From: Eubacteriales bacterium
GTDB taxonomy: Bacteria > Bacillota > Clostridia > Lachnospirales > Lachnospiraceae
DNA length: 41,073 nucleotides
NCBI GenBank assembly: GCA_030537135.1
Contig: JAUNOP010000021.1
Location: 1-41,073, forward strand
Direction of reading: 5' to 3'
Position numbers and translations under genes: made by a program. Below are positions 25,955 through 35,555 of the stretch, in pieces. The notes below the pieces were generated by a model. It worked only from the letters and a program-made list of their open reading frames with translations. It did no database searches and was not told the origin of the DNA. Within the stretch, counting starts at the first letter, position 1; every line of letters starts with the position of its first letter.

Positions 25955-26557
25955 TTGCAGATCCCAAAATCATCTATCTTTTACCAGCTGAGAAATTATG
26001 AAAAAAACAAGAGCTGGCTGACAGGAGTTCCTCATATCCGCTATCTGGATATGAGTATTGTATTTTATTATCCTGTCCCCCAGAAAGAAGAAGAGCAGGT
26101 GGCTCTTGTCACAAATGAAAACATAAAAAACTGGCAGATATCCGTTGAGGAGCTGGAAGAGCTGGCAGCGGAGAATACGCCGAAATTTCATCCTCTGTTC
26201 TTTACTGCTCTGGAGACTTTGATTCAGGAGCTTTGTGAAGAATGTCTTATGCCCCAGGTCCAGCCGGATCGATCCCTTCCCATGTATGTACTGAGCAATC
26301 AAAAAAAGCTTTTTGGAGCCGCAGCAATCCTTTATCCAGGCGCGCTTCTCCAAATCAGCCGCTGCCTCAAGGATGATCTCTATGTGCTTCCGAGTTCTGT
26401 GCATGAATGCATTCTTGTTCCGGTAAACAGTGTCTATACCAGAGCTGAGCTGGAAAACATTGTGAGAGAGGTCAATGAAAATCAGGTGCCAGATGAGGAT
26501 TTTCTGTCCAATCATATTTATTTCTACAGCAGCCAGGATGATTCCCTGCATTCCTGA
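25955..26557 (+). CDS. DUF5688 family protein, short form
   Basis: 200 residues from a TTG at 25955 with AAAGGG upstream. The sequence follows the C-terminal two thirds of DUF5688 proteins of Lachnospiraceae: NYEKNKSWLTGVPHIRYLDM, SIVFYYPV, a HPLFFTALETLIQEL helix, MYVLSNQKKLFGAAAILYPG, and DDLYVLPSSVHECILVP. Typical members have about 100 more N-terminal residues, so this is a short form or a truncated gene; no remnant is seen upstream. The function of the family is unknown. The sipW gene starts 4 bp after its stop. Confidence 0.75.
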   Translation: MQIPKSSIFYQLRNYEKNKSWLTGVPHIRYLDMSIVFYYPVPQKEEEQVALVTNENIKNWQISVEELEELAAENTPKFHPLFFTALETLIQELCEECLMPQVQPDRSLPMYVLSNQKKLFGAAAILYPGALLQISRCLKDDLYVLPSSVHECILVPVNSVYTRAELENIVREVNENQVPDEDFLSNHIYFYSSQDDSLHS

Positions 26558-26561
26558 ATGG

Positions 26562-27080
26562 ATGAGGCAAAAAAAGGATAAAAAACAGGGGCATATACTT
26601 TATTTTGCTCTTTTTGCCGCTGGGGTGGCAGGGATGATGTATCTGGCGGGAATCCGGCCTTACATTGTACTTTCTGGCTCTATGGAGCCGGTAATACATA
26701 CCGGTTCTCTGGCTCTGGTTGACACCAGAGACAAAATACCAAAGATTGGCGATATAGTGACGTACTGTCAGCAGGATATGATTGTCACGCATCGTATAGT
26801 TCGAGAAGAAGGCGGCGGATATGTGACAAAAGGAGACGCAAATGAGACAGAGGATGAAGGAAGGGTTGAACAGGAAAGGATTCTGGGAATCTGCCGGTGC
26901 TCTATTCCGTTGATGGGATATGCGGCGTGGTGGATACAGCATCCCCTGATAAAAGCAGCTGTTTTTCTTTTGATTTTGTCAGGCGTACTCCTGGAATGCA
27001 TCCCAAATGAGAGGGACGGCAAAGATTTTTCAAAAAAAGAAAAGGAGATTATTCATTATGAAAAGAAGAAAGATTGCTAG
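26562..27080 (+). CDS. sipW: SipW-type (ER-type) signal peptidase I
   Basis: 172 residues. One membrane helix (11-30) leads to catalytic Ser40 in VLSGSMEP. A His (His77, IVTHRIV) takes the place of the usual Lys, which marks the S26B or SipW group. A GDAN box and a second hydrophobic helix near the C-terminus complete the family layout. I start at 26562 because this gives the normal short cytoplasmic N-terminus; an ATG at 26475 would overlap DUF5688 and add a Cys-rich tail. It overlaps the next gene by 23 bp. It is expected to process the three downstream proteins that carry SipW-type signals. Confidence 0.9.
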   Translation: MRQKKDKKQGHILYFALFAAGVAGMMYLAGIRPYIVLSGSMEPVIHTGSLALVDTRDKIPKIGDIVTYCQQDMIVTHRIVREEGGGYVTKGDANETEDEGRVEQERILGICRCSIPLMGYAAWWIQHPLIKAAVFLLILSGVLLECIPNERDGKDFSKKEKEIIHYEKKKDC

Positions 27081-27777
27081 AACAGCGGCAATGTTTACCC
27101 TGGCAGGGGCTCTGGCTCTTGGAGGCGCAGCAGCCTATACCACAGCCTATCTCACAGACCATGAGGGCGTGGTCAACGAGTTTACAGTAGGAAAGGTGAA
27201 GATTGATTTGACAGAAACCAACTGGAATCCAGATAATCATACCAGAATTCAGCCTTCTGAAGAGATTCCCAAGAATCCTGCGATTACCAATACAGGTGTG
27301 AACGATGCATATGTGTATCTGGAAGTTTCCATACCTATGAAGGAGGTGATTACCGCAGATGAAGATGGAAACAGACAGGAGGCAAGAAAGCAGGAGCTGT
27401 TCTCCTTTGAAGAGAAAGCTGGCTGGAAGCAGCTGAAAAGGGAACAGAGCGGAGATAATATGGTGTACACGTACAACTACAGCCAGGTGCTGGCAAAGGG
27501 ACAGACAACCGGAACCTTGTTTGATTCAGTGAAGTTTCTCAATATCATTGAGGGACAGCTTGATACAGAAAAACTGGATATTCCGGTCAAGGCCTTTGCC
27601 ATTCAGACAGAGAACACAGGAAATACAGGAAGCAGCGTAGACCAGAAGGCAGCTGCTGCTTATAACAAGTATATGAATCAAAATCGTGACCAGGAAGGGA
27701 GAGTGACTGTGCAGACGCCTGCATCCTCACAGACGGGTGCAGGGCGTGACACAGAGGAACCTGGAGAGATTTCCTGA
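27058..27777 (+). CDS. SipW-dependent TasA/camelysin-like surface protein 1
   Basis: 239 residues. The signal region KIARTAAMFTLAGALALGG followed by AYTTAYLTD, then NEFTVGKVKIDL, is the hallmark of TasA/CalY-type SipW substrates. The mature part is a beta-rich jelly-roll-like domain (NPAITNTGVNDAYVYLEVSI, TGTLFDSVKFLNII), ending in a Gln/Thr/Ser-rich tail after about residue 200. There is no sorting motif. AAAGGAG precedes the ATG at 27058. By analogy with TasA it could form fibres or a matrix; that role is inferred. Confidence 0.87.
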   Translation: MKRRKIARTAAMFTLAGALALGGAAAYTTAYLTDHEGVVNEFTVGKVKIDLTETNWNPDNHTRIQPSEEIPKNPAITNTGVNDAYVYLEVSIPMKEVITADEDGNRQEARKQELFSFEEKAGWKQLKREQSGDNMVYTYNYSQVLAKGQTTGTLFDSVKFLNIIEGQLDTEKLDIPVKAFAIQTENTGNTGSSVDQKAAAAYNKYMNQNRDQEGRVTVQTPASSQTGAGRDTEEPGEIS

Positions 27778-27817
27778 TATCTGAGAATATGTCTGTTATT
27801 TGGAGAGGAGTAAGGAT

Positions 27818-28384
27818 ATGAGGCTTGAAAAGATAAAATGGGGAATACTCCTGACTTTGCTGCCTGTTTTAACAGCAGCAGGAGTCACTGTCTCCTATCT
27901 TACAGCTCATGACACGAAAATGAATGCTGTAGGAGTAGGAAAAAATCCTATTCAGATTCAGGAGGAATTTCCAGAACCCACTCCCACGCCCCAGCCAGGA
28001 GGGGAGAAGTCTTATAAAAAGGTGGTGACAATAGCCAATACTCCGGATGGAGTGACTGGCTTTCTGGTAGATTGCTATGTAAGAGCCTATATTTCCTATA
28101 ACAATTCAGATATAGGAAAGGCAGTGACGCTTCAGGGATTAGATACAGCAAACTGGGTTTATAATTCAAAGGATGGTTATTATTATTACAGACCTGTTTT
28201 AAAGGAGAAGGAGCGCACAACACCATTGATGACTGGCTTTCTGGTTGATCCCTCTCAGATAGAGAGAGCTTATGAGCAGTACATAGAAAGCTTTGAGATC
28301 AATGTCTATGCAGAGTCTATAGGAACGCAGAACTATGACAGCTATCAGTCTGCGTGGGAGGCTTATCTTGACAGAAAGCTGTAG
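27818..28384 (+). CDS. SipW-dependent surface protein 2
   Basis: 188 residues. The short signal WGILLTLLPVLTAAGVTVS leads to YLTAHD, again the SipW-type pattern, then NAVGVGKNPIQIQEEF. A TPTPQPGGE linker follows, then a beta-rich domain with VDCYVRAYISYNNSDIG and DGYYYYRPVL. Length and order resemble minor components in SipW clusters. GAGAGGAGTAAGG lies before the ATG at 27818. There is no C-terminal anchor. The function is not established. Confidence 0.82.
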   Translation: MRLEKIKWGILLTLLPVLTAAGVTVSYLTAHDTKMNAVGVGKNPIQIQEEFPEPTPTPQPGGEKSYKKVVTIANTPDGVTGFLVDCYVRAYISYNNSDIGKAVTLQGLDTANWVYNSKDGYYYYRPVLKEKERTTPLMTGFLVDPSQIERAYEQYIESFEINVYAESIGTQNYDSYQSAWEAYLDRKL

Positions 28385-28394
28385 GGGGAAGGAT

Positions 28395-29591
28395 ATGAAA
28401 AGGGAGATAAAAAGAAAAGCAGTGCTGGCAGTGGGGGCAGCCTTTGTGCTGGCGGCAGGAGTTTGGGCCTCTTTTGAGGACTCAGTGGAGGTTACCAATT
28501 TTCTCTCCATGGGAGATGTCCAGATTTCCCTGGCTGAATATGAGCTGGAGGAAGAGGGGACAGAGATTCCCTATACCAATTCTGTTCAGATTATGCCGGG
28601 TGACACAATAAGTAAGATTCCTCGCATTACAAATGAAGGGGAGCCATGCTGGATACGTGCCAGAGTACTTTATACGAATTCCATGGAAGAGGAGGAGGGG
28701 CTTGAAGCCTCCCTCCTTCTCGGAGTTTCCCCAAAATGGAAAAGGCAGGGGGAATATTTTTACTATACGCAGGTACTGAAAAATGGAGAAAGCGCAGACC
28801 TTTTTAAAGCAGTAGAGATACCATGGAAATGGACAGAAGTGCATACAAAGCAGGAGCTGTCTATTACAGTAGAGGCAGATGCTGTTCAGGCAGTTCATTT
28901 TCAGCCCGATTTTTCGGCGGCCTCTCCCTGGGGAGATATTGATGTTGAGGTATGTGTACATGAAAGGAATGGAAGAATCGTAGATGCAGCAGAAAAGGTG
29001 GAGCTGTGCGTGGAATTTGAGGGAGAGGCACACAGGCTTGTGGCTGTGCCACTGGATTTTTTTCAGAATTTTTCTGATGCTATGCCAGGGGACGAGCTGT
29101 GTGATAAGGTGCTTATCAAAAATACAACACAAGAGGAGGCTGAGATTTTTTTCCGAACAGGCCTGGAAGAAATGACAAGGGAAGAACAGGAATTCCTGGA
29201 AAAGCTGGAGCTGAGGCTGTCTTATGCTGGAAGACTTCTGTATTCCGGAAACCTAGCAGCCAGAGAGGCAGATAGTGATATTTCTCTTGGCACGTTCTCA
29301 CCTGGAGAAGAGGGAAGTCTTAGCTTTTGCATTCTGGTACCCCCTGAGCTTGGAAATGCCTATGCTCTGAGACAAGGAAGGGTAAAATGGATTTTTTCGG
29401 TCAAGCAGGAAGAAGGGCAGATTACAGCTCCAGCTAATCCAACGGCATCAGAAGAACAGACAACGTCTCCTGTAAAGACAGGAGATAATACACCGATATT
29501 CCTGTGGATAATGACCATTGTTCTGGCGGGAATTGCAGCAGGGTGCATAATTTTTCACAGGAAGAGAGGGGGAAGACATCATGAAGAGTAG
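28395..29591 (+). CDS. SipW-type surface protein 3 with C-terminal sorting signal
   Basis: 398 residues. The signal region AVLAVGAAFVLAAGVWASFED followed by NFLSMGDVQISL fits SipW substrates. Two beta-rich halves follow, each with a TasA-like pattern (IPRITNEGEPCWIRARVLY; DKVLIKNTTQEEAEIFFRTGL). The C-terminus has PVKTGD (359-364), a hydrophobic helix (about 368-388) and HRKRGGRHHEE, which is a sortase signal of the KTGD type. It is therefore probably wall-anchored, but no sortase gene is in the window. It starts 10 bp after gene 2 and overlaps the next gene by 11 bp. Confidence 0.85.
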   Translation: MKREIKRKAVLAVGAAFVLAAGVWASFEDSVEVTNFLSMGDVQISLAEYELEEEGTEIPYTNSVQIMPGDTISKIPRITNEGEPCWIRARVLYTNSMEEEEGLEASLLLGVSPKWKRQGEYFYYTQVLKNGESADLFKAVEIPWKWTEVHTKQELSITVEADAVQAVHFQPDFSAASPWGDIDVEVCVHERNGRIVDAAEKVELCVEFEGEAHRLVAVPLDFFQNFSDAMPGDELCDKVLIKNTTQEEAEIFFRTGLEEMTREEQEFLEKLELRLSYAGRLLYSGNLAAREADSDISLGTFSPGEEGSLSFCILVPPELGNAYALRQGRVKWIFSVKQEEGQITAPANPTASEEQTTSPVKTGDNTPIFLWIMTIVLAGIAAGCIIFHRKRGGRHHEE

Positions 29592-32500
29592 AAGGGGAGT
29601 TGGATTAATTTTAGCGCTTTCCCTGATAATAGGTGATTGCTTTGGAGCTTTTGGCGCGCATGAGCTTTTGGCGCCGGAGCTTCCTCAGACACTGGAGGAA
29701 GTGCCAGAGGAACCGGATTCTGCACAGGAGGAGCTGGAGATAGAGCTGCCTATAGAAGAAACACAACAAGCAGCCTCAGAGGAAACTATGCTTCAGGGTA
29801 ATGCGCTGTTTTTACAGGAGTCGATACAGGAGGGGATTCTTTGGGAAGAGCCGGAAATTTCTGATGAGGAGCCAGAGCCAGCAGAAACCATGCAGCCCTT
29901 ACAGGAACAGAATGAGTCGATTTTTCAGGAAGATATGATGGATGGCGAGGCTCTTGCAGAGGCGATTGAAAGCGGAGAGGTTTTGGCATTGTCTCCTGCT
30001 GTGGAGGCTACAGCAGAGCTGTTTTATGCTGCTGGCTTGGAGAATATGCCCACTGCAGTGGCACAAAGCGCATCAGGCTATAAGATTATTCAGAGAGGCT
30101 TGGCTATTATTACAGACTCTCAGGGAGAATGGGCCAATACAGGCTTTCGATCAATTCAATATACGGACAGTACAGGGGCTGTGCAGGAATCTCCTCTATA
30201 TTGTCTTAACGCCTCAAGAAGTTCAGATGGCGTCCAGGGACATCTTACCCCGGATAATGGGTATCATGGAGAGGCTCCTGTACAAGAAATAGGAGTTCTG
30301 GAAAATGCCCTGCTTCAGAAGATTTTATATTTTGGCTATGGAGGGCCTGGAGATATTACAGGAACAGAGGATCCTACATGCTCTCATATTGACTGGTCGC
30401 CACCAAGAGTGAAATATGCATTTACGCATTATGCGCTTTCTTATGTGTACAGTGGAGATTTGGCAGGAGTAAGCCTTCAGAGAGCAGAGGAATCCGGACT
30501 TATGAGATTCATACAGATGTGTCAGAGCAGAAAAATTCCTTCTTTTAATGATTTGACTTTTTCTGCAAGAAATAGCTATAGTGATGCAGCGGTTTCCTCA
30601 AAAACGTCTGGAAGAAGTATCACGACAAAATTTACCCTGTATAGAAGCTCTGATGCTGCCATAGGAGCAAAAACCGGATTTACGGACGGGTACCAGCTTT
30701 CTGAGGTAATCAGCATCAGCGGAAGCCGTCAGAACAGCATTTCCATTACAGCTCCGTCAGATGAAAGCAGATGGAAGGTGATGTACTGGAAGAGCAGCAG
30801 CGATTATAATAAGCTTGGAGAAGAAGGAGCTCTTTTGTCGGCTCCAGGCTCTGCTTTGAAATTATATGGAGGCTATTGCTTTCGCATTATTGTAGGAAAA
30901 ACAAGGAGGGCTGTGTGGAATTATAATTTTTCCATGAATCTTCATCCAGTTACCTTTATTTTGATAAGTGGGGAAGACAATATTAATTTTCCACAGTACA
31001 ATACAGAAGCTCAACAGGATTTTGGAGCCTTTGTTTATACCGATGCCCCGGCTTCTATGACGCTTTCTATAAAGCCGCAGCCTTATGGAAGGATTGAACT
31101 GAATAAAATCAGCAGCTTTCAGGGGGAATCTGTGAAGGGGGCAAAATTTGAGCTGTATGCTGCCCAGAAGATTTACTCAGGCTACAATCTGATCTATCAT
31201 AAGGATGAGAAAATCACAGATTTTGTGATGGATTCAGGAAATCATCGGATAAAGCTGATTTATCCGGGAAAGTATTATTTTGTGGAAACAGCTCCGCCGC
31301 CCGGACATAAGCTGGGAAGCGAGACAACGTACTCTGTTACAGTGGATACAGCATCCTGCACTACGGCAACCTCAGATGTGGTTCCTGTATCAATAACCGT
31401 ATCCAATCCGCCTGTGATTGAAGTGACAGTGAGCCTGAACAAGGTAGATTCGGTGACAGGAGAGAGCCTTAAAGGGGCTAGCTTTATCATTGATGAATGG
31501 GACGGAAGCCGGTATTCTGCCAGCACAAAATACAAGCTGCTGTATGAGGAAGAGAGCGGAATTTATAAAAGCAATAGAAAGCTTGTCTGGACTGTAAAAA
31601 ACAAGGGAAAATTCCGGGTCAGAGAGATAGAGGCACCGGCAGGATATAGGGGAGCGTTTAGCAGAGAGTTTACAATCGGGGATTCCTTTCCTGAATACCA
31701 GGAGGAGCTTTTTCTTGGAAATGCAGAAAATGAGCCGATGGAGGGGAAAAGAATAACAATATATAAGATTGACAGTGAGACTGGAGAGCCTCTGGAGGAA
31801 GCGGAATTTACTCTATATGAGTGGGATGGCTCTGCTTATGCAGAAAAGGAAATGCTTATATGGGATTCTGTGCGCAGCCTTTATGAGAGCAGTGAACTGA
31901 AAATTACCGAGCAGAACAGCGGAAGATATAAGGTAGTGGAAACAAAGCTTCCAGACGGATATACAGGAGTCTATGAGGAAGAATTTTATCTTGATGATAA
32001 TGAGGATTCCTTTTATAGAGAAGCAGTGAATACTCCTGTGGCAAGGGAAGATGGAACCTTGAGCATTATCAAAAAGGATTCGCAGACTGGAGAAATTTTG
32101 GAGGGAGCAGAATTTGTGCTTCTGGAATGGAACCAGGCAGCAGGAGCCTATGAGGATACCCTGAAGGAGCAGAGAATTCTTTCCTATAATCAAACGTCAG
32201 CAGCGTATGAATCCGGAACCTTATATCGGACAGAAAAAAATGAAGGAAAATTTCTGGTAAGGGAGGAAAAGAATCCAGAGGGGTATACAGGAAGCTTTGA
32301 GCAGGAATTTCAGATTAAAAAAGGACAGGAAAATACGTTTACTTATACTGTATACAATGAGCCGGATATTCCTGTGGGAGAGATTACAGTGATAAAAAGG
32401 ATTAAGGAAAGCGATATTAACTGGGCAAATGGAAACCCGATATTTTCCTTTGTGGCAGAAGGCACTGACAGAAACGGGATTTTTCACAGGTATGAGGATT

Positions 32501-32883
32501 TTGTGATGTTTGTCAATGGGGAAGGAATTTATGAGGTGGACGAACAGGGCTATGCTGTCCTTGGCTTTACCTTCCGCAATGTTCCGGAAGGAACCTATGA
32601 AGTCTATGAAAAAGAAACTCTGAGATACTATCTGGCAGACCTGACAAGCGCCTCTCCGAATGTGTCAGTGAAATCTTCTGCGCCCTGCGAGTATGGCTGC
32701 AATCCAAAGGATAGCTTTACTGGTATTGTGAGTTTGAAAAGAGAAGCTGGCAGGCAGACGCTTCAGGCGACTTTAGTTTTCACAAATGAGAAAAAGAGAT
32801 GGGATGGCTTCAGTCACACAGATGTGGTTAAGAATACAGCAGAAAATGTGATGGAAACACAGACGCTTTCCCAGAAACCATAA
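29581..32883 (+). CDS. large thioester-domain/Cna-B repeat surface protein
   Basis: 1100 residues. A signal peptide (1-26) leads to a long Glu-rich region (30-160). A thioester-like domain follows with Cys208 (PLYCLNASRSSDG) and ENALLQKILYFGYGG; where most such domains have TQ, this one has THYALSYVY (His283), so the Cys-Gln bond may be absent or use Gln246. Five Cna-B/SpaA-type domains begin near 503, 615, 724, 827 and 934, with the Lys strand (LNKVDSVTGE, IYKIDSETGE, IIKKDSQTGE) and Glu motif (REIEAPAGY, EEKNPEGY) used for isopeptide bonds. The end (QTLSQKP) has no sorting motif or helix. It looks like an adhesin or matrix protein. Confidence 0.85.
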   Translation: MKSRRGVGLILALSLIIGDCFGAFGAHELLAPELPQTLEEVPEEPDSAQEELEIELPIEETQQAASEETMLQGNALFLQESIQEGILWEEPEISDEEPEPAETMQPLQEQNESIFQEDMMDGEALAEAIESGEVLALSPAVEATAELFYAAGLENMPTAVAQSASGYKIIQRGLAIITDSQGEWANTGFRSIQYTDSTGAVQESPLYCLNASRSSDGVQGHLTPDNGYHGEAPVQEIGVLENALLQKILYFGYGGPGDITGTEDPTCSHIDWSPPRVKYAFTHYALSYVYSGDLAGVSLQRAEESGLMRFIQMCQSRKIPSFNDLTFSARNSYSDAAVSSKTSGRSITTKFTLYRSSDAAIGAKTGFTDGYQLSEVISISGSRQNSISITAPSDESRWKVMYWKSSSDYNKLGEEGALLSAPGSALKLYGGYCFRIIVGKTRRAVWNYNFSMNLHPVTFILISGEDNINFPQYNTEAQQDFGAFVYTDAPASMTLSIKPQPYGRIELNKISSFQGESVKGAKFELYAAQKIYSGYNLIYHKDEKITDFVMDSGNHRIKLIYPGKYYFVETAPPPGHKLGSETTYSVTVDTASCTTATSDVVPVSITVSNPPVIEVTVSLNKVDSVTGESLKGASFIIDEWDGSRYSASTKYKLLYEEESGIYKSNRKLVWTVKNKGKFRVREIEAPAGYRGAFSREFTIGDSFPEYQEELFLGNAENEPMEGKRITIYKIDSETGEPLEEAEFTLYEWDGSAYAEKEMLIWDSVRSLYESSELKITEQNSGRYKVVETKLPDGYTGVYEEEFYLDDNEDSFYREAVNTPVAREDGTLSIIKKDSQTGEILEGAEFVLLEWNQAAGAYEDTLKEQRILSYNQTSAAYESGTLYRTEKNEGKFLVREEKNPEGYTGSFEQEFQIKKGQENTFTYTVYNEPDIPVGEITVIKRIKESDINWANGNPIFSFVAEGTDRNGIFHRYEDFVMFVNGEGIYEVDEQGYAVLGFTFRNVPEGTYEVYEKETLRYYLADLTSASPNVSVKSSAPCEYGCNPKDSFTGIVSLKREAGRQTLQATLVFTNEKKRWDGFSHTDVVKNTAENVMETQTLSQKP

Positions 32884-32980: not shown

Positions 32981-33053
32981 ATGCAAAGGTGTTAAAAATA
33001 TGATGCCAAATTATTAAAAAAGGCAGGTATTTTGTTTCATTCCTGCGAAATAT

Positions 33054-33125
33054 GCACCTGTAGCTCAGTGGATAGAGCAGTGGTTTCCGGTACCATGTGC
33101 GGGGGTTCGATTCCCTTCAGGTGTG
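33054..33125 (+). tRNA. tRNA-Arg (anticodon CCG)
   Basis: Complete cloverleaf: acceptor GCACCTG with CAGGTGT, D stem GCTC/GAGC, anticodon stem GTGGT/ACCAT around TTCCGGT (anticodon CCG at 33087-33089), variable loop GTGC, T arm GGGGG-TTCGATT-CCCTT with two G-T pairs. CCA is not encoded. It reads the arginine codon CGG. It lies 54 bp before the next gene. Confidence 0.95.
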
Positions 33126-33179
33126 TTGCCTGGAACGGTGGTTCGTTCCGGTGCGTTGTATCATAAGGAGGACAAGAAC

Positions 33180-34186: not shown

Positions 34187-35383
34187 CTATTCAAAGGTTA
34201 TTTCTCCGTAGGCAATCCCAGAATTCAGGGCCATATTGTGACGCTCTGCCAGCTCATGAACAGTTACCAGGTCGTAGCCTGCCTCAATCAGCATGGGAAT
34301 AAGGGTTTCCACAGCCTCTGCGGTTTCCTCGTAAATTTCATGCATAAGAATAATGGAACCATCTCTGACATTCTGTGCAGCGGACAGAATCGTCTGCTCA
34401 GGGTCTCTTGTCTTCCAGTCCAGTGTATCAATGGACCAGAGAACCATAGGAGTCTCAGTGGAAGAGGCGACAAAATCATTAAAGGCTCCATAAGGCGGGC
34501 GCAGAACCGTAGCCTTGTGTCCGACAAGCTTTTCAAGCTCAGCATCTGTATCATTGATTTCACTGGCAATCTCCTGGGCGGTGAGCTTGGTCAGGTCGGC
34601 ATGATGATAGGTATGATTGCCAAGCTCGCATCCCAAAGCGTCCATACGCTTCACCTGTTCAGGGAAATTCGGAATTAATTCACCAAGCATAAAGAAGGTT
34701 GCTTTGGCATGGTTGGCCTCCAGACAATCAAGGATTCTGTCTGCATATTGTCCGGGACCGTCATCAAATGTAATTGCGATTGACGGCTTGCTTCCATCCG
34801 GATTTGGAACTGCCTTTGCAGGAAATTCGATTTGCTCCGGCTGTTCTGGAACAGGAGTCGGAGTCGGCTCCGCGTATCCTTCCATTGTTCCGTTTTCTGC
34901 AAAAAGGTAGACTCTTCCATCAATAGGAATCTTTCCTGTCTGCATGATTCCGTCTTCATCAAAGTAATAACGCTTTCCATTATGATTCAGCCAGCCGGTC
35001 AGCATAATACCCTTGGTATTAAAATAATAAATATGACCGTCTGTATCATAAAACCACCCGGTAATGGGGGTATCATTCACCTCAAAGTACCAGCTGCCCC
35101 CAACAGGAACCCACTCTCCCTCATAGGCTTCAGGTGAGATGTAGGGCTCATCAGAAGAAGTGCTGTCTGCAGGCACCTGATTGGAAGAGATATTGGTGCT
35201 TGGCTTATTTTGAGCTGAGTCGGACGGAGAAGTCTTGTTTTCTTTGGCATCTTTTGTATCAACAGTATTAGAATAGGAAGCCATATCAGAAGAAGACTGC
35301 TCCAAAAATACGCCGGATGTCAGACACAAAAGTATGGTCAAAATCACCAGTAAAGGATTGGTATGCTTCTTCTCTCCTGACAT
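34187..35383 (-). CDS. polysaccharide deacetylase with cell-wall-binding repeats
   Basis: 398 residues. An N-terminal membrane or signal helix (PLLVILTILLCLTSGVFL) leads to a Ser/Thr-rich linker. Three choline-binding-type repeats follow (WYFEVNDTPITGWFYDTDG, IYYFNTKGIMLTGW, RYYFDEDGIMQTG), then a TPTPVP linker. The NodB domain has TFDDGPGQ (catalytic Asp and metal Asp), HTYHHADL (two metal His), RPPYGAFND and LMHEI. It probably deacetylates peptidoglycan or a surface glycan on the outer face. The start at 35383 has AAGGAG 7 bp upstream on the minus strand; an ATG at 35389 is too close to it. Confidence 0.92.
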   Translation of the reverse strand: MSGEKKHTNPLLVILTILLCLTSGVFLEQSSSDMASYSNTVDTKDAKENKTSPSDSAQNKPSTNISSNQVPADSTSSDEPYISPEAYEGEWVPVGGSWYFEVNDTPITGWFYDTDGHIYYFNTKGIMLTGWLNHNGKRYYFDEDGIMQTGKIPIDGRVYLFAENGTMEGYAEPTPTPVPEQPEQIEFPAKAVPNPDGSKPSIAITFDDGPGQYADRILDCLEANHAKATFFMLGELIPNFPEQVKRMDALGCELGNHTYHHADLTKLTAQEIASEINDTDAELEKLVGHKATVLRPPYGAFNDFVASSTETPMVLWSIDTLDWKTRDPEQTILSAAQNVRDGSIILMHEIYEETAEAVETLIPMLIEAGYDLVTVHELAERHNMALNSGIAYGEITFE

Positions 35384-35555
35384 TCTCATTCTCCTTAACA
35401 TTCAAAACTGCATTTACATCATAACGTGAAAAGCAAAAAAACACAATAGAGAAATCGGTTTTTTTGTCAAATGCTGTTACTCCAAAGAAATTGCTCTGAA
35501 CACAGTGAACGGCAATACCAAAAGAGCGCTGTCCTTATTTTTCTGAGACTGCTGG

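What the first reader, a model, noticed from the sequence alone, without database searches (positions are those of the whole stretch)
25955..32883. SipW cluster: dedicated peptidase, three SipW substrates and a giant Cna-B protein
Six genes with overlaps or short gaps form a likely single operon. A SipW peptidase, three TasA/camelysin-like proteins (one with a sortase signal) and an 1100-aa thioester/Cna-B protein suggest a fibre or matrix system in which a wall-anchored base holds a covalently stabilised adhesin. I know of no characterised system with this exact set.
Basis: partly seen in the sequence, partly recalled or inferred. Interest (0 to 1): 0.75.

Follow-up and report, generated by a model that had tools for sequence, protein, structure and literature searches.

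The report
Gut-bacterium fibre with docking tip adhesin
This stretch of a Blautia-type gut bacterium's DNA encodes what looks like a surface fibre of the TasA kind, with its own signal-cutting enzyme, a wall-anchored subunit and a giant adhesin whose tail resembles the strand that the fibre subunits use to plug into each other.

Summary
The cluster is real, but has five genes, not six: SipW, two TasA/BsaA-like subunits (A, B), a two-domain TasA-like protein with a sortase signal (C) and a Cna-B giant. The leading DUF5688 gene is truncated and absent from relatives' clusters. In Blautia the giant's C-terminal domain occurs in 42 of 44 sampled genomes with C and in none of 16 without it at E<1e-10. 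The parts recur, often reordered, in other genera of the family.

New observation: the giant lacks a sorting signal (0 of 58). Its head is swapped between species, but its C-terminal domain tracks A/B/C. Behind it lies a tail resembling, in register, the donor strand of A, B, C and TasA: [DH]x5N in 58 of 58 (background 149 of 779), a stricter motif in 42 of 58 (5 of 779). AlphaFold gives the tail no secondary structure.

I propose that the tail plugs the open groove of a donor-strand fibre, making the giant its cap or tip adhesin. No complex was modelled, fold searches never ran, the thioester is doubtful, and the window's own tail fails the stricter motif.

The parts
25955..26557 (+). Truncated DUF5688 ORF (TTG start); probably not part of the system
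   Evidence: PF18941 only from profile position 98/290; only copy found in the genome; no match in 20 of 20 same-genus loci
26562..27080 (+). SipW, ER-type signal peptidase I (ORF opens at 26475)
   Evidence: TIGR02228 81.4 bits over cut-off; Ser38 and His77 invariant in 20 sequences
27058..27777 (+). A: TasA/BsaA-like subunit, putative shaft
   Evidence: TIGR04088 over cut-off; 28 of 28 family members match BsaA model TIGR04090 at E<=1e-3, 9 of 28 TasA model NF046066
27148..27192 (+). A donor-strand motif YLTDHEGVVNEFTVG after the signal peptide
   Evidence: D34, N40, G45 invariant in 28; same register as TasA residues 28-42
27818..28384 (+). B: short TasA/BsaA-like subunit, minor or adaptor
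   Evidence: 29 of 29 family members match TIGR04090 at E<=1e-3; hhalign to A 98.9%, to C 99.1%
27896..27940 (+). B donor-strand-like segment YLTAHDTKMNAVGVG (lacks the Asp seen in many relatives)
28395..29591 (+). C: two beta-sandwich domains, SipW-type N-terminus and a sortase signal; putative wall-anchored end
   Evidence: AlphaFold domains about 29-165 and 205-338, C-terminal helix 368-391, mean pLDDT 85.9
28470..28514 (+). C donor-strand-like segment SFEDSVEVTNFLSMG
   Evidence: D29 invariant, N35 in at least 90% of 23
29466..29486 (+). C sorting motif SPVKTGD
   Evidence: T362 and D364 invariant in 23 sequences; one sortase found in the genome, class B
29581..32883 (+). Giant Cna-B protein: Sec-type signal peptide (by reading), TED_2-like head, four SpaA stretches, docking domain, tail
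   Evidence: PF17802 x4, PF20610
32371..32793 (+). Constant C-terminal docking domain of the giant (predicted complete beta-sandwich)
   Evidence: AlphaFold strands end at residue 141 of the 170-residue fragment
32794..32880 (+). C-terminal tail of the giant; donor-like segment GFSHTDVVKNTAENV at 32806-32850
   Evidence: no secondary structure in the model, pLDDT blocks 75, 68, 53

Best explanation
The locus encodes a SipW-dependent, TasA-type donor-strand fibre. SipW removes the signal peptides of A, B and C and frees an N-terminal strand on each. A polymerises by inserting that strand into the open groove of the next subunit, as TasA does; B is a minor or adaptor subunit. C, with two TasA-type domains and a PVKTGD sorting signal, ties the fibre to the wall through sortase. 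The giant Cna-B protein is secreted by the ordinary route and has no sorting signal. Its C-terminal domain ends in a free peptide that imitates the donor strand. This peptide fills the one groove that polymerisation leaves open, so the giant starts or caps the fibre and displays its interchangeable head, most likely at the tip. Shown: gene set, conservation, head swapping, tail motif, tail without secondary structure behind a complete predicted domain. Inferred: SipW processing, strand insertion, capping, polarity, sortase linkage, adhesion.
For: Same five parts: 20 of 20 same-genus loci fetched (chosen for contig length; B recognised in 19, giant split in one); 35 of 45 named loci scanned have all five, all on one strand, 31 in one order and 4 in two others; in 20 loci of 18 other genera all five in 14 and a partial set in six. 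Co-occurrence: giant C-domain in 42 of 44 genomes with C (E<=3.5e-9) and 0 of 16 without at E<1e-10; in both exceptions less than 1.9 kb of contig remains downstream of C. No giant has a sorting motif followed by a hydrophobic stretch: 0 of 58 have a hydrophobic run of 14 in the last 70 residues. The head varies (median identity 0.19) while the C-domain (0.43) tracks A, B and C (rho 0.79-0.82; head 0.38-0.45). Tail: [DH]x5N after the domain in 58 of 58 (background 149 of 779); stricter motif 42 of 58 vs 5 of 779. Positions not used in the pattern also match the donors: D at +2 24/41 vs 2/52, aromatic or Leu at -2 35/41 vs 12/52, V/I/A at +4 33/41 vs 13/52. The tail is the best donor-like window of 1029 in the giant's family profile. 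AlphaFold leaves it without secondary structure after a complete domain. TasA's donor strand is residues 28-38 with contacts by F29, I32, F39 (PMC9674648 passages), in register with the motif. TapA supplies a first donor strand (passages).
Against: No complex could be modelled and no experiment exists. The motif is short: column-shuffled donor profiles reach the tail score in 122 of 5000 trials; within single proteins the tail's median rank is 3 of about 1050 with A+B+C (first in 5 of 21) but 54 with A alone. The window's own tail has Ala at the F39 position and fails the stricter motif; its B lacks the Asp. 16 of 58 giants fail the stricter motif. In 12 more distant loci (two near-identical) 3 large neighbours end in D-x5-N, no more than the background rate for that loose pattern, and none passes the stricter one. 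Sequences are not independent, and 20 of the 58 were found with a profile that included the tail. The motif part of the tail has pLDDT about 70, so it is not clearly disordered. A and C match no solved structure by sequence; B only ATP synthases at E about 0.1; fold searches never ran.
Confidence: 0.6

Rival explanations
1. Same fibre, but the giant sits at the base: its tail fills a groove of wall-anchored C, whose own N-strand then starts the A fibre outward, as TapA is thought to do near the cell surface.
For: The tail scores higher with B or C donor profiles than with A; C has its own donor-like strand; TapA is reported at the cell surface (passages).
Against: Growth toward the cell ending in a sorted base would resemble other pili (recalled); no data here separate the two.
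Confidence: 0.2
2. The locus makes a loose biofilm matrix like C. perfringens BsaA; the giant is an independent surface or secreted adhesin and its tail is a chance or unrelated conserved peptide.
For: A and B families match the BsaA model at E<=1e-3; BsaA polymerises without BsaB and BsaC (passages); in distant loci the loose tail pattern is not enriched.
Against: Exact spacing in 58 of 58 and matches at extra positions; linkage of the C-domain to C in 42 of 44 genomes; mirror-tree pattern.
Confidence: 0.15
3. A classical sortase-polymerised pilus in which Cna-B proteins form the shaft.
For: SpaA/Cna-B domains and one sorting signal; distant, sub-threshold match of the giant to a SpaH/EbpB major pilin model.
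Against: No sorting signal with hydrophobic stretch in 58 of 58 giants; the one sortase found in the genome is class B, on another contig (assembly 91% complete).
Confidence: 0.05

Closest known systems
Bacillus subtilis tapA-sipW-tasA (TasA donor-strand fibre)
   Same: Dedicated SipW; subunits whose N-terminal strand after the signal peptide carries the motif; a partner (TapA) donates a strand (passages)
   Different: TapA donates an N-terminal strand, here a C-terminal tail of a Cna-B giant is proposed; an extra wall-anchored two-domain subunit and a second small subunit are present here
Clostridium perfringens sipW-bsaABCRSD
   Same: sipW with a BsaA-family filament protein in one operon (passages); A and B families match the BsaA model, below cut-off
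   Different: No two-component genes seen in this cluster; the other Bsa proteins were not compared; BsaA was reported mainly extracellular with no LPXTG-like motif, whereas C here has a sorting signal
Bacillus cereus TasA/CalY/CapP
   Same: TasA-family filaments with an accessory assembly protein (abstract and passages)
   Different: CapP is a DUF4047 repeat protein, described as sortase-independent; no Cna-B adhesin in the passages seen
F-BclA tip fibrillum on F-ENA spore appendages (Bacillus thuringiensis)
   Same: A terminal collagen-like adhesin couples to the fibre by imitating the subunit-subunit contact (passages)
   Different: Spore appendage with N-terminal hook peptides; the paper places F-ENA outside the donor-strand class
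FimA/Mfa1 fimbriae of Porphyromonas
   Same: C-terminal donor strands and a base protein that ends elongation (passages)
   Different: Gram-negative and gingipain-processed; a separate pathway
Sortase-built SpaA-type pili
   Same: Cna-B/SpaA domains and a sortase signal in the locus
   Different: The giant has no sorting signal; polymerisation is not by sortase in the proposed model

Membership tests
SipW-type (ER-type) signal peptidase I | Signal peptidase I family with Ser/His catalytic pair | tested here: met
   TIGR02228 over cut-off; Ser38 and His77 invariant in 20. Catalytic roles recalled
Bacillus SipW equivalog NF046067 | Score over curated cut-off | tested here: not met
   72.2 vs 190 bits
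TasA/camelysin (PF12389) | Score over gathering cut-off | tested here: not met
   A 17.3, C 19.2 vs 22.5 bits; B no match at E<=0.05
SipW-dependent substrates (TIGR04088) | Signal-peptide motif over cut-off | tested here: met
   Met by A only (20.4 vs 19 bits); at E<=1e-3, 28 of 28 A, 12 of 29 B and 9 of 23 C family members match; the window's B and C do not
BsaA (TIGR04090) | Score over cut-off 60 | tested here: not met
   A 27.6, B 25.0 bits
TasA-type donor-strand fibre | N-terminal donor strand inserts into the next subunit's groove | not testable with these tools
   Motif and register fit; no complex modelled
Sortase substrate (C) | Sorting motif, hydrophobic stretch, basic tail | tested here: met
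   SPVKTGD plus helix 368-391; class B sortase in the genome; sortase cleavage not testable
Thioester-domain adhesin | Conserved Cys-Gln pair | tested here: inconclusive
   TED_2 over cut-off, but TH-x-A-L in place of TQ-x-A (motif recalled)
Sortase-polymerised pilus | Shaft pilins with sorting signal and pilus sortase | tested here: not met
   No sorting signal in 58 of 58 giants; the one sortase found is class B (assembly 91% complete)

The most novel reading that the evidence does not exclude
A class of Gram-positive pili, common in Blautia and present in other Lachnospiraceae, in which an interchangeable Cna-B tip adhesin is mounted on a TasA-type fibre through a C-terminal peptide that mimics the subunit donor strand, with a wall-sorted two-domain TasA-like protein at the other end.
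Probability: 0.5. Interest if true: 0.87.

Novelty: new variant of a known kind. Interest (0 to 1): 0.72.

Why it matters
Blautia and its relatives are common human-gut bacteria (recalled); the searches run here found no paper describing this fibre system in them (one search listed 15 of 1,117 papers). If right, the model explains how a non-covalent TasA-type fibre could carry a defined adhesin, gives a sequence signature for finding such adhesins, and makes it testable how TasA-type fibres start, end and attach to the wall.

Tried and rejected
Six-gene operon: rejected, because DUF5688 is a lone truncated ORF with no match in relatives' clusters. Homology of the giant's C-domain to TasA-like subunits: not seen, hhalign probability 0.4% against A. 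Sequence hits to solved structures: none for A, C or the docking domain; B's hits to ATP synthase at E about 0.1 were ignored. Natural fusion of docking domain and TasA-like domain: none among the ORFs of 112 loci. Single-protein PSSM rank with A alone was weak. Class-level survey: 5 of 290 other genomes have the docking domain, 3 of these weakly (E>1e-7), so it looks largely confined to the family. One protein (L089) continues about 390 residues past the domain; it carries a motif-like segment, but not at its end. The family survey with C counts many matches to the sorting tail alone, so its 97 of 299 is not a count of clusters. Rows dropped: duplicates with identical last 60 residues before the 58 count. 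My first check for sorting signals used a pattern that would have missed C's own type; one search repeated it with a wider one (12 of 58 giants hold such letters, but 0 of 58 a hydrophobic run of 14; as a control, 60 of 70 C proteins hold the motif and 67 of 70 a run of 10).
Full report
Observation. The + strand carries, after an EF-P-like gene, a truncated DUF5688 ORF, then SipW, three SipW-type proteins (A, B, C) and an 1100-residue Cna-B protein. Likely starts give overlaps or gaps of at most 40 nt within the five. Pfam and NCBIfam support SipW (TIGR02228), a SipW-type signal on A (TIGR04088), SpaA x4 and TED_2 in the giant; the TasA/BsaA matches of A, B and C are below curated cut-offs. 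DUF5688 is matched only from profile position 98 and is the single copy found in the genome.

Conservation in the genus. C was searched in 60 genomes of the genus: 44 have a convincing match (E<=3.5e-9); 50 match at the default threshold, the other six only in the sorting tail. In 20 fetched loci, chosen for contig length, the order SipW-A-B-C-giant is kept in all 20 (B recognised in 19; the giant split in L032), and none shows the window's flanking genes. Of 45 named loci scanned, 35 contain all five parts, all on one strand; median gap -4 nt counted from the first possible start codons.

Other genera. With the giant's C-terminal domain plus tail as query, 22 of 299 family genomes match, own genome and one congener included; 21 of the 22 have a C-profile match on the same contig. 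In 20 loci from 18 other genera the parts lie together, often reordered; 14 of 20 have all five, and six lack a recognisable A or a two-domain C. In the class, 5 of 290 other genomes match.

The giant is modular. 24 of the 33 invariant columns of the 19-sequence alignment lie in its last ~160 residues, whereas heads differ. A TED_2-like head with TH-x-A-L is present in 15 of 58. Of seven giants scanned with Pfam, one has TED_2 and one a sub-threshold TED match, three have sub-threshold AgI/II C2 matches (one also choline-binding repeats over cut-off), one shows SpaA and related domains only, and one matches nothing. Across 35 clusters the pairwise distances of the C-domain follow those of A, B and C (rho 0.79-0.82; SipW 0.64); those of the head do so less (0.38-0.45). 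In the 60 genus genomes the C-domain occurs in 42 of the 44 with C and, at E<1e-10, in none of the 16 without (G023 has only E about 2e-4 hits); in the two exceptions less than 1.9 kb of contig is left downstream of C. No giant among 58 has a sorting motif followed by a hydrophobic stretch.

The tail. In A, B and C the segment after the signal peptide reads roughly [YFL][ST]D-x5-N-x-[FVI]-x-V-G, in register with the TasA donor strand, residues 28-38, and F39 (PMC9674648 passages; PDB 8aur sequence). The giant's tail reads Y-S-[HD]-x-D-x3-N-x-[IFV]-P-V in the majority. With a profile cut before the tail, 58 proteins with distinct ends were collected from 112 loci; all 58 have [DH]x5N in the 80 residues that begin at the domain end (149 of 779 background ORFs in their last 80) and 42 of 58 the stricter motif (5 of 779). 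By source: 13 of 19 from L031-L050, 18 of 20 from L079-L098, 11 of 19 from L099 on; only L079-L098 had been found with the tail in the query, the others through C. Positions not used in the pattern also agree: D at +2 in 24 of 41 vs 2 of 52 chance motif hits, aromatic or Leu at -2 in 35 vs 12, V/I/A at +4 in 33 vs 13, V/I/L at +10 in 25 vs 16 (columns). In the giant's family profile the tail is the best of 1029 windows for the donor PSSM; column-shuffled PSSMs reach its score in 122 of 5000. In single proteins its median rank is 3 of about 1050 (A+B+C), 7 (B), 3 (C) and 54 (A). Sequences are related, so these counts are not probabilities.

Limits. The window's own tail (GFSHTDVVKNTAENV) keeps H and N but has Ala at the hydrophobic place, so it fails the stricter pattern. 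In 12 more distant loci with a large neighbour (two near-identical), three (L154, L156, L164) end in D-x5-N by eye and none meets the stricter pattern; 3 of 12 is no more than background for the loose pattern. The tail signal is thus shown for Lachnospiraceae only.

Structure. AlphaFold of the giant's last 170 residues (40 sequences from window and named loci) gives a complete beta-sandwich to residue 141 and a tail without secondary structure (pLDDT 75, 68, 53 per block of ten; the motif part is thus of middling confidence); mean 88.6, pTM 0.82. C is predicted as two beta-sandwich domains with an N-terminal strand 29-39 and a C-terminal helix after the sorting motif (mean 85.9, pTM 0.70). A, B and the first domain of C are one family by profile comparison. 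Fold searches against solved structures were never accepted by the queue.

Mechanism. In TasA fibres subunit n puts its N-strand into subunit n+1, so one groove at the start must be filled by another protein; TapA is reported to do this with its N-terminus (PMC9674648, PMC10151520, passages). The giant looks like a donor-only protein: a strand, but no TasA-like domain detected. C has TasA-like domains, a strand and a wall signal. The simplest chain is giant tail -> (B) -> A(n) -> C -> wall, with the giant outermost. The alternative chain, giant -> C -> A outward, is not excluded. The one sortase found in the genome (91% complete) is class B.

Known or new. Closest are tapA-sipW-tasA, C. perfringens sipW-bsaABCRSD (PMC7395162 passages), the B. 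cereus TasA/CalY/CapP system (PMC13082335 abstract and passages) and, by analogy, F-BclA on F-ENA (PMC11952670 passages) and Porphyromonas fimbriae (PMC8313007 passages). Searches for TasA with tip adhesin, SipW with Lachnospiraceae, and C-terminal donor strand with Gram-positive adhesin gave no description of this arrangement (listings); most subscription papers and all bioRxiv preprints are outside that library. I therefore class it as a new variant of a known kind.

Noticed in passing
window 25955-26557: Lone DUF5688 ORF lacking the first third of the family profile, TTG start, stop 4 nt before the likely SipW start; looks like a decayed or truncated gene.
   Followed up: partly
window 33053-33126: tRNA-Arg (CCG) just downstream of the giant; the next ORF's called GTG start (33123) overlaps the tRNA end, so its true start is probably further in.
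   Followed up: no
L103, L105 (Blautia MAG cluster1_bin.74) and genome G033: One genome carries more than one copy of the cluster parts (two strong C matches, several docking-domain matches).
   Followed up: no
L032 / L101: The giant is split into two ORFs in this MAG (disruption or assembly error); its C-terminal piece keeps domain and tail.
   Followed up: no
L152-L170: More distant SipW clusters hold several TasA-like genes, many with a large Cna-B-like protein; some of these (L155, L159, L165) end in tails that keep V-x-N-x-F but not the Asp/His.
   Followed up: partly
own genome G000 C37:34625-34834 (L173): A second, weak SipW-like match (E 2.5e-5).
   Followed up: no
window 34187-35401 (-): By reading only: a polysaccharide-deacetylase-like protein with choline-binding-type wall repeats near the cluster.
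   Followed up: no
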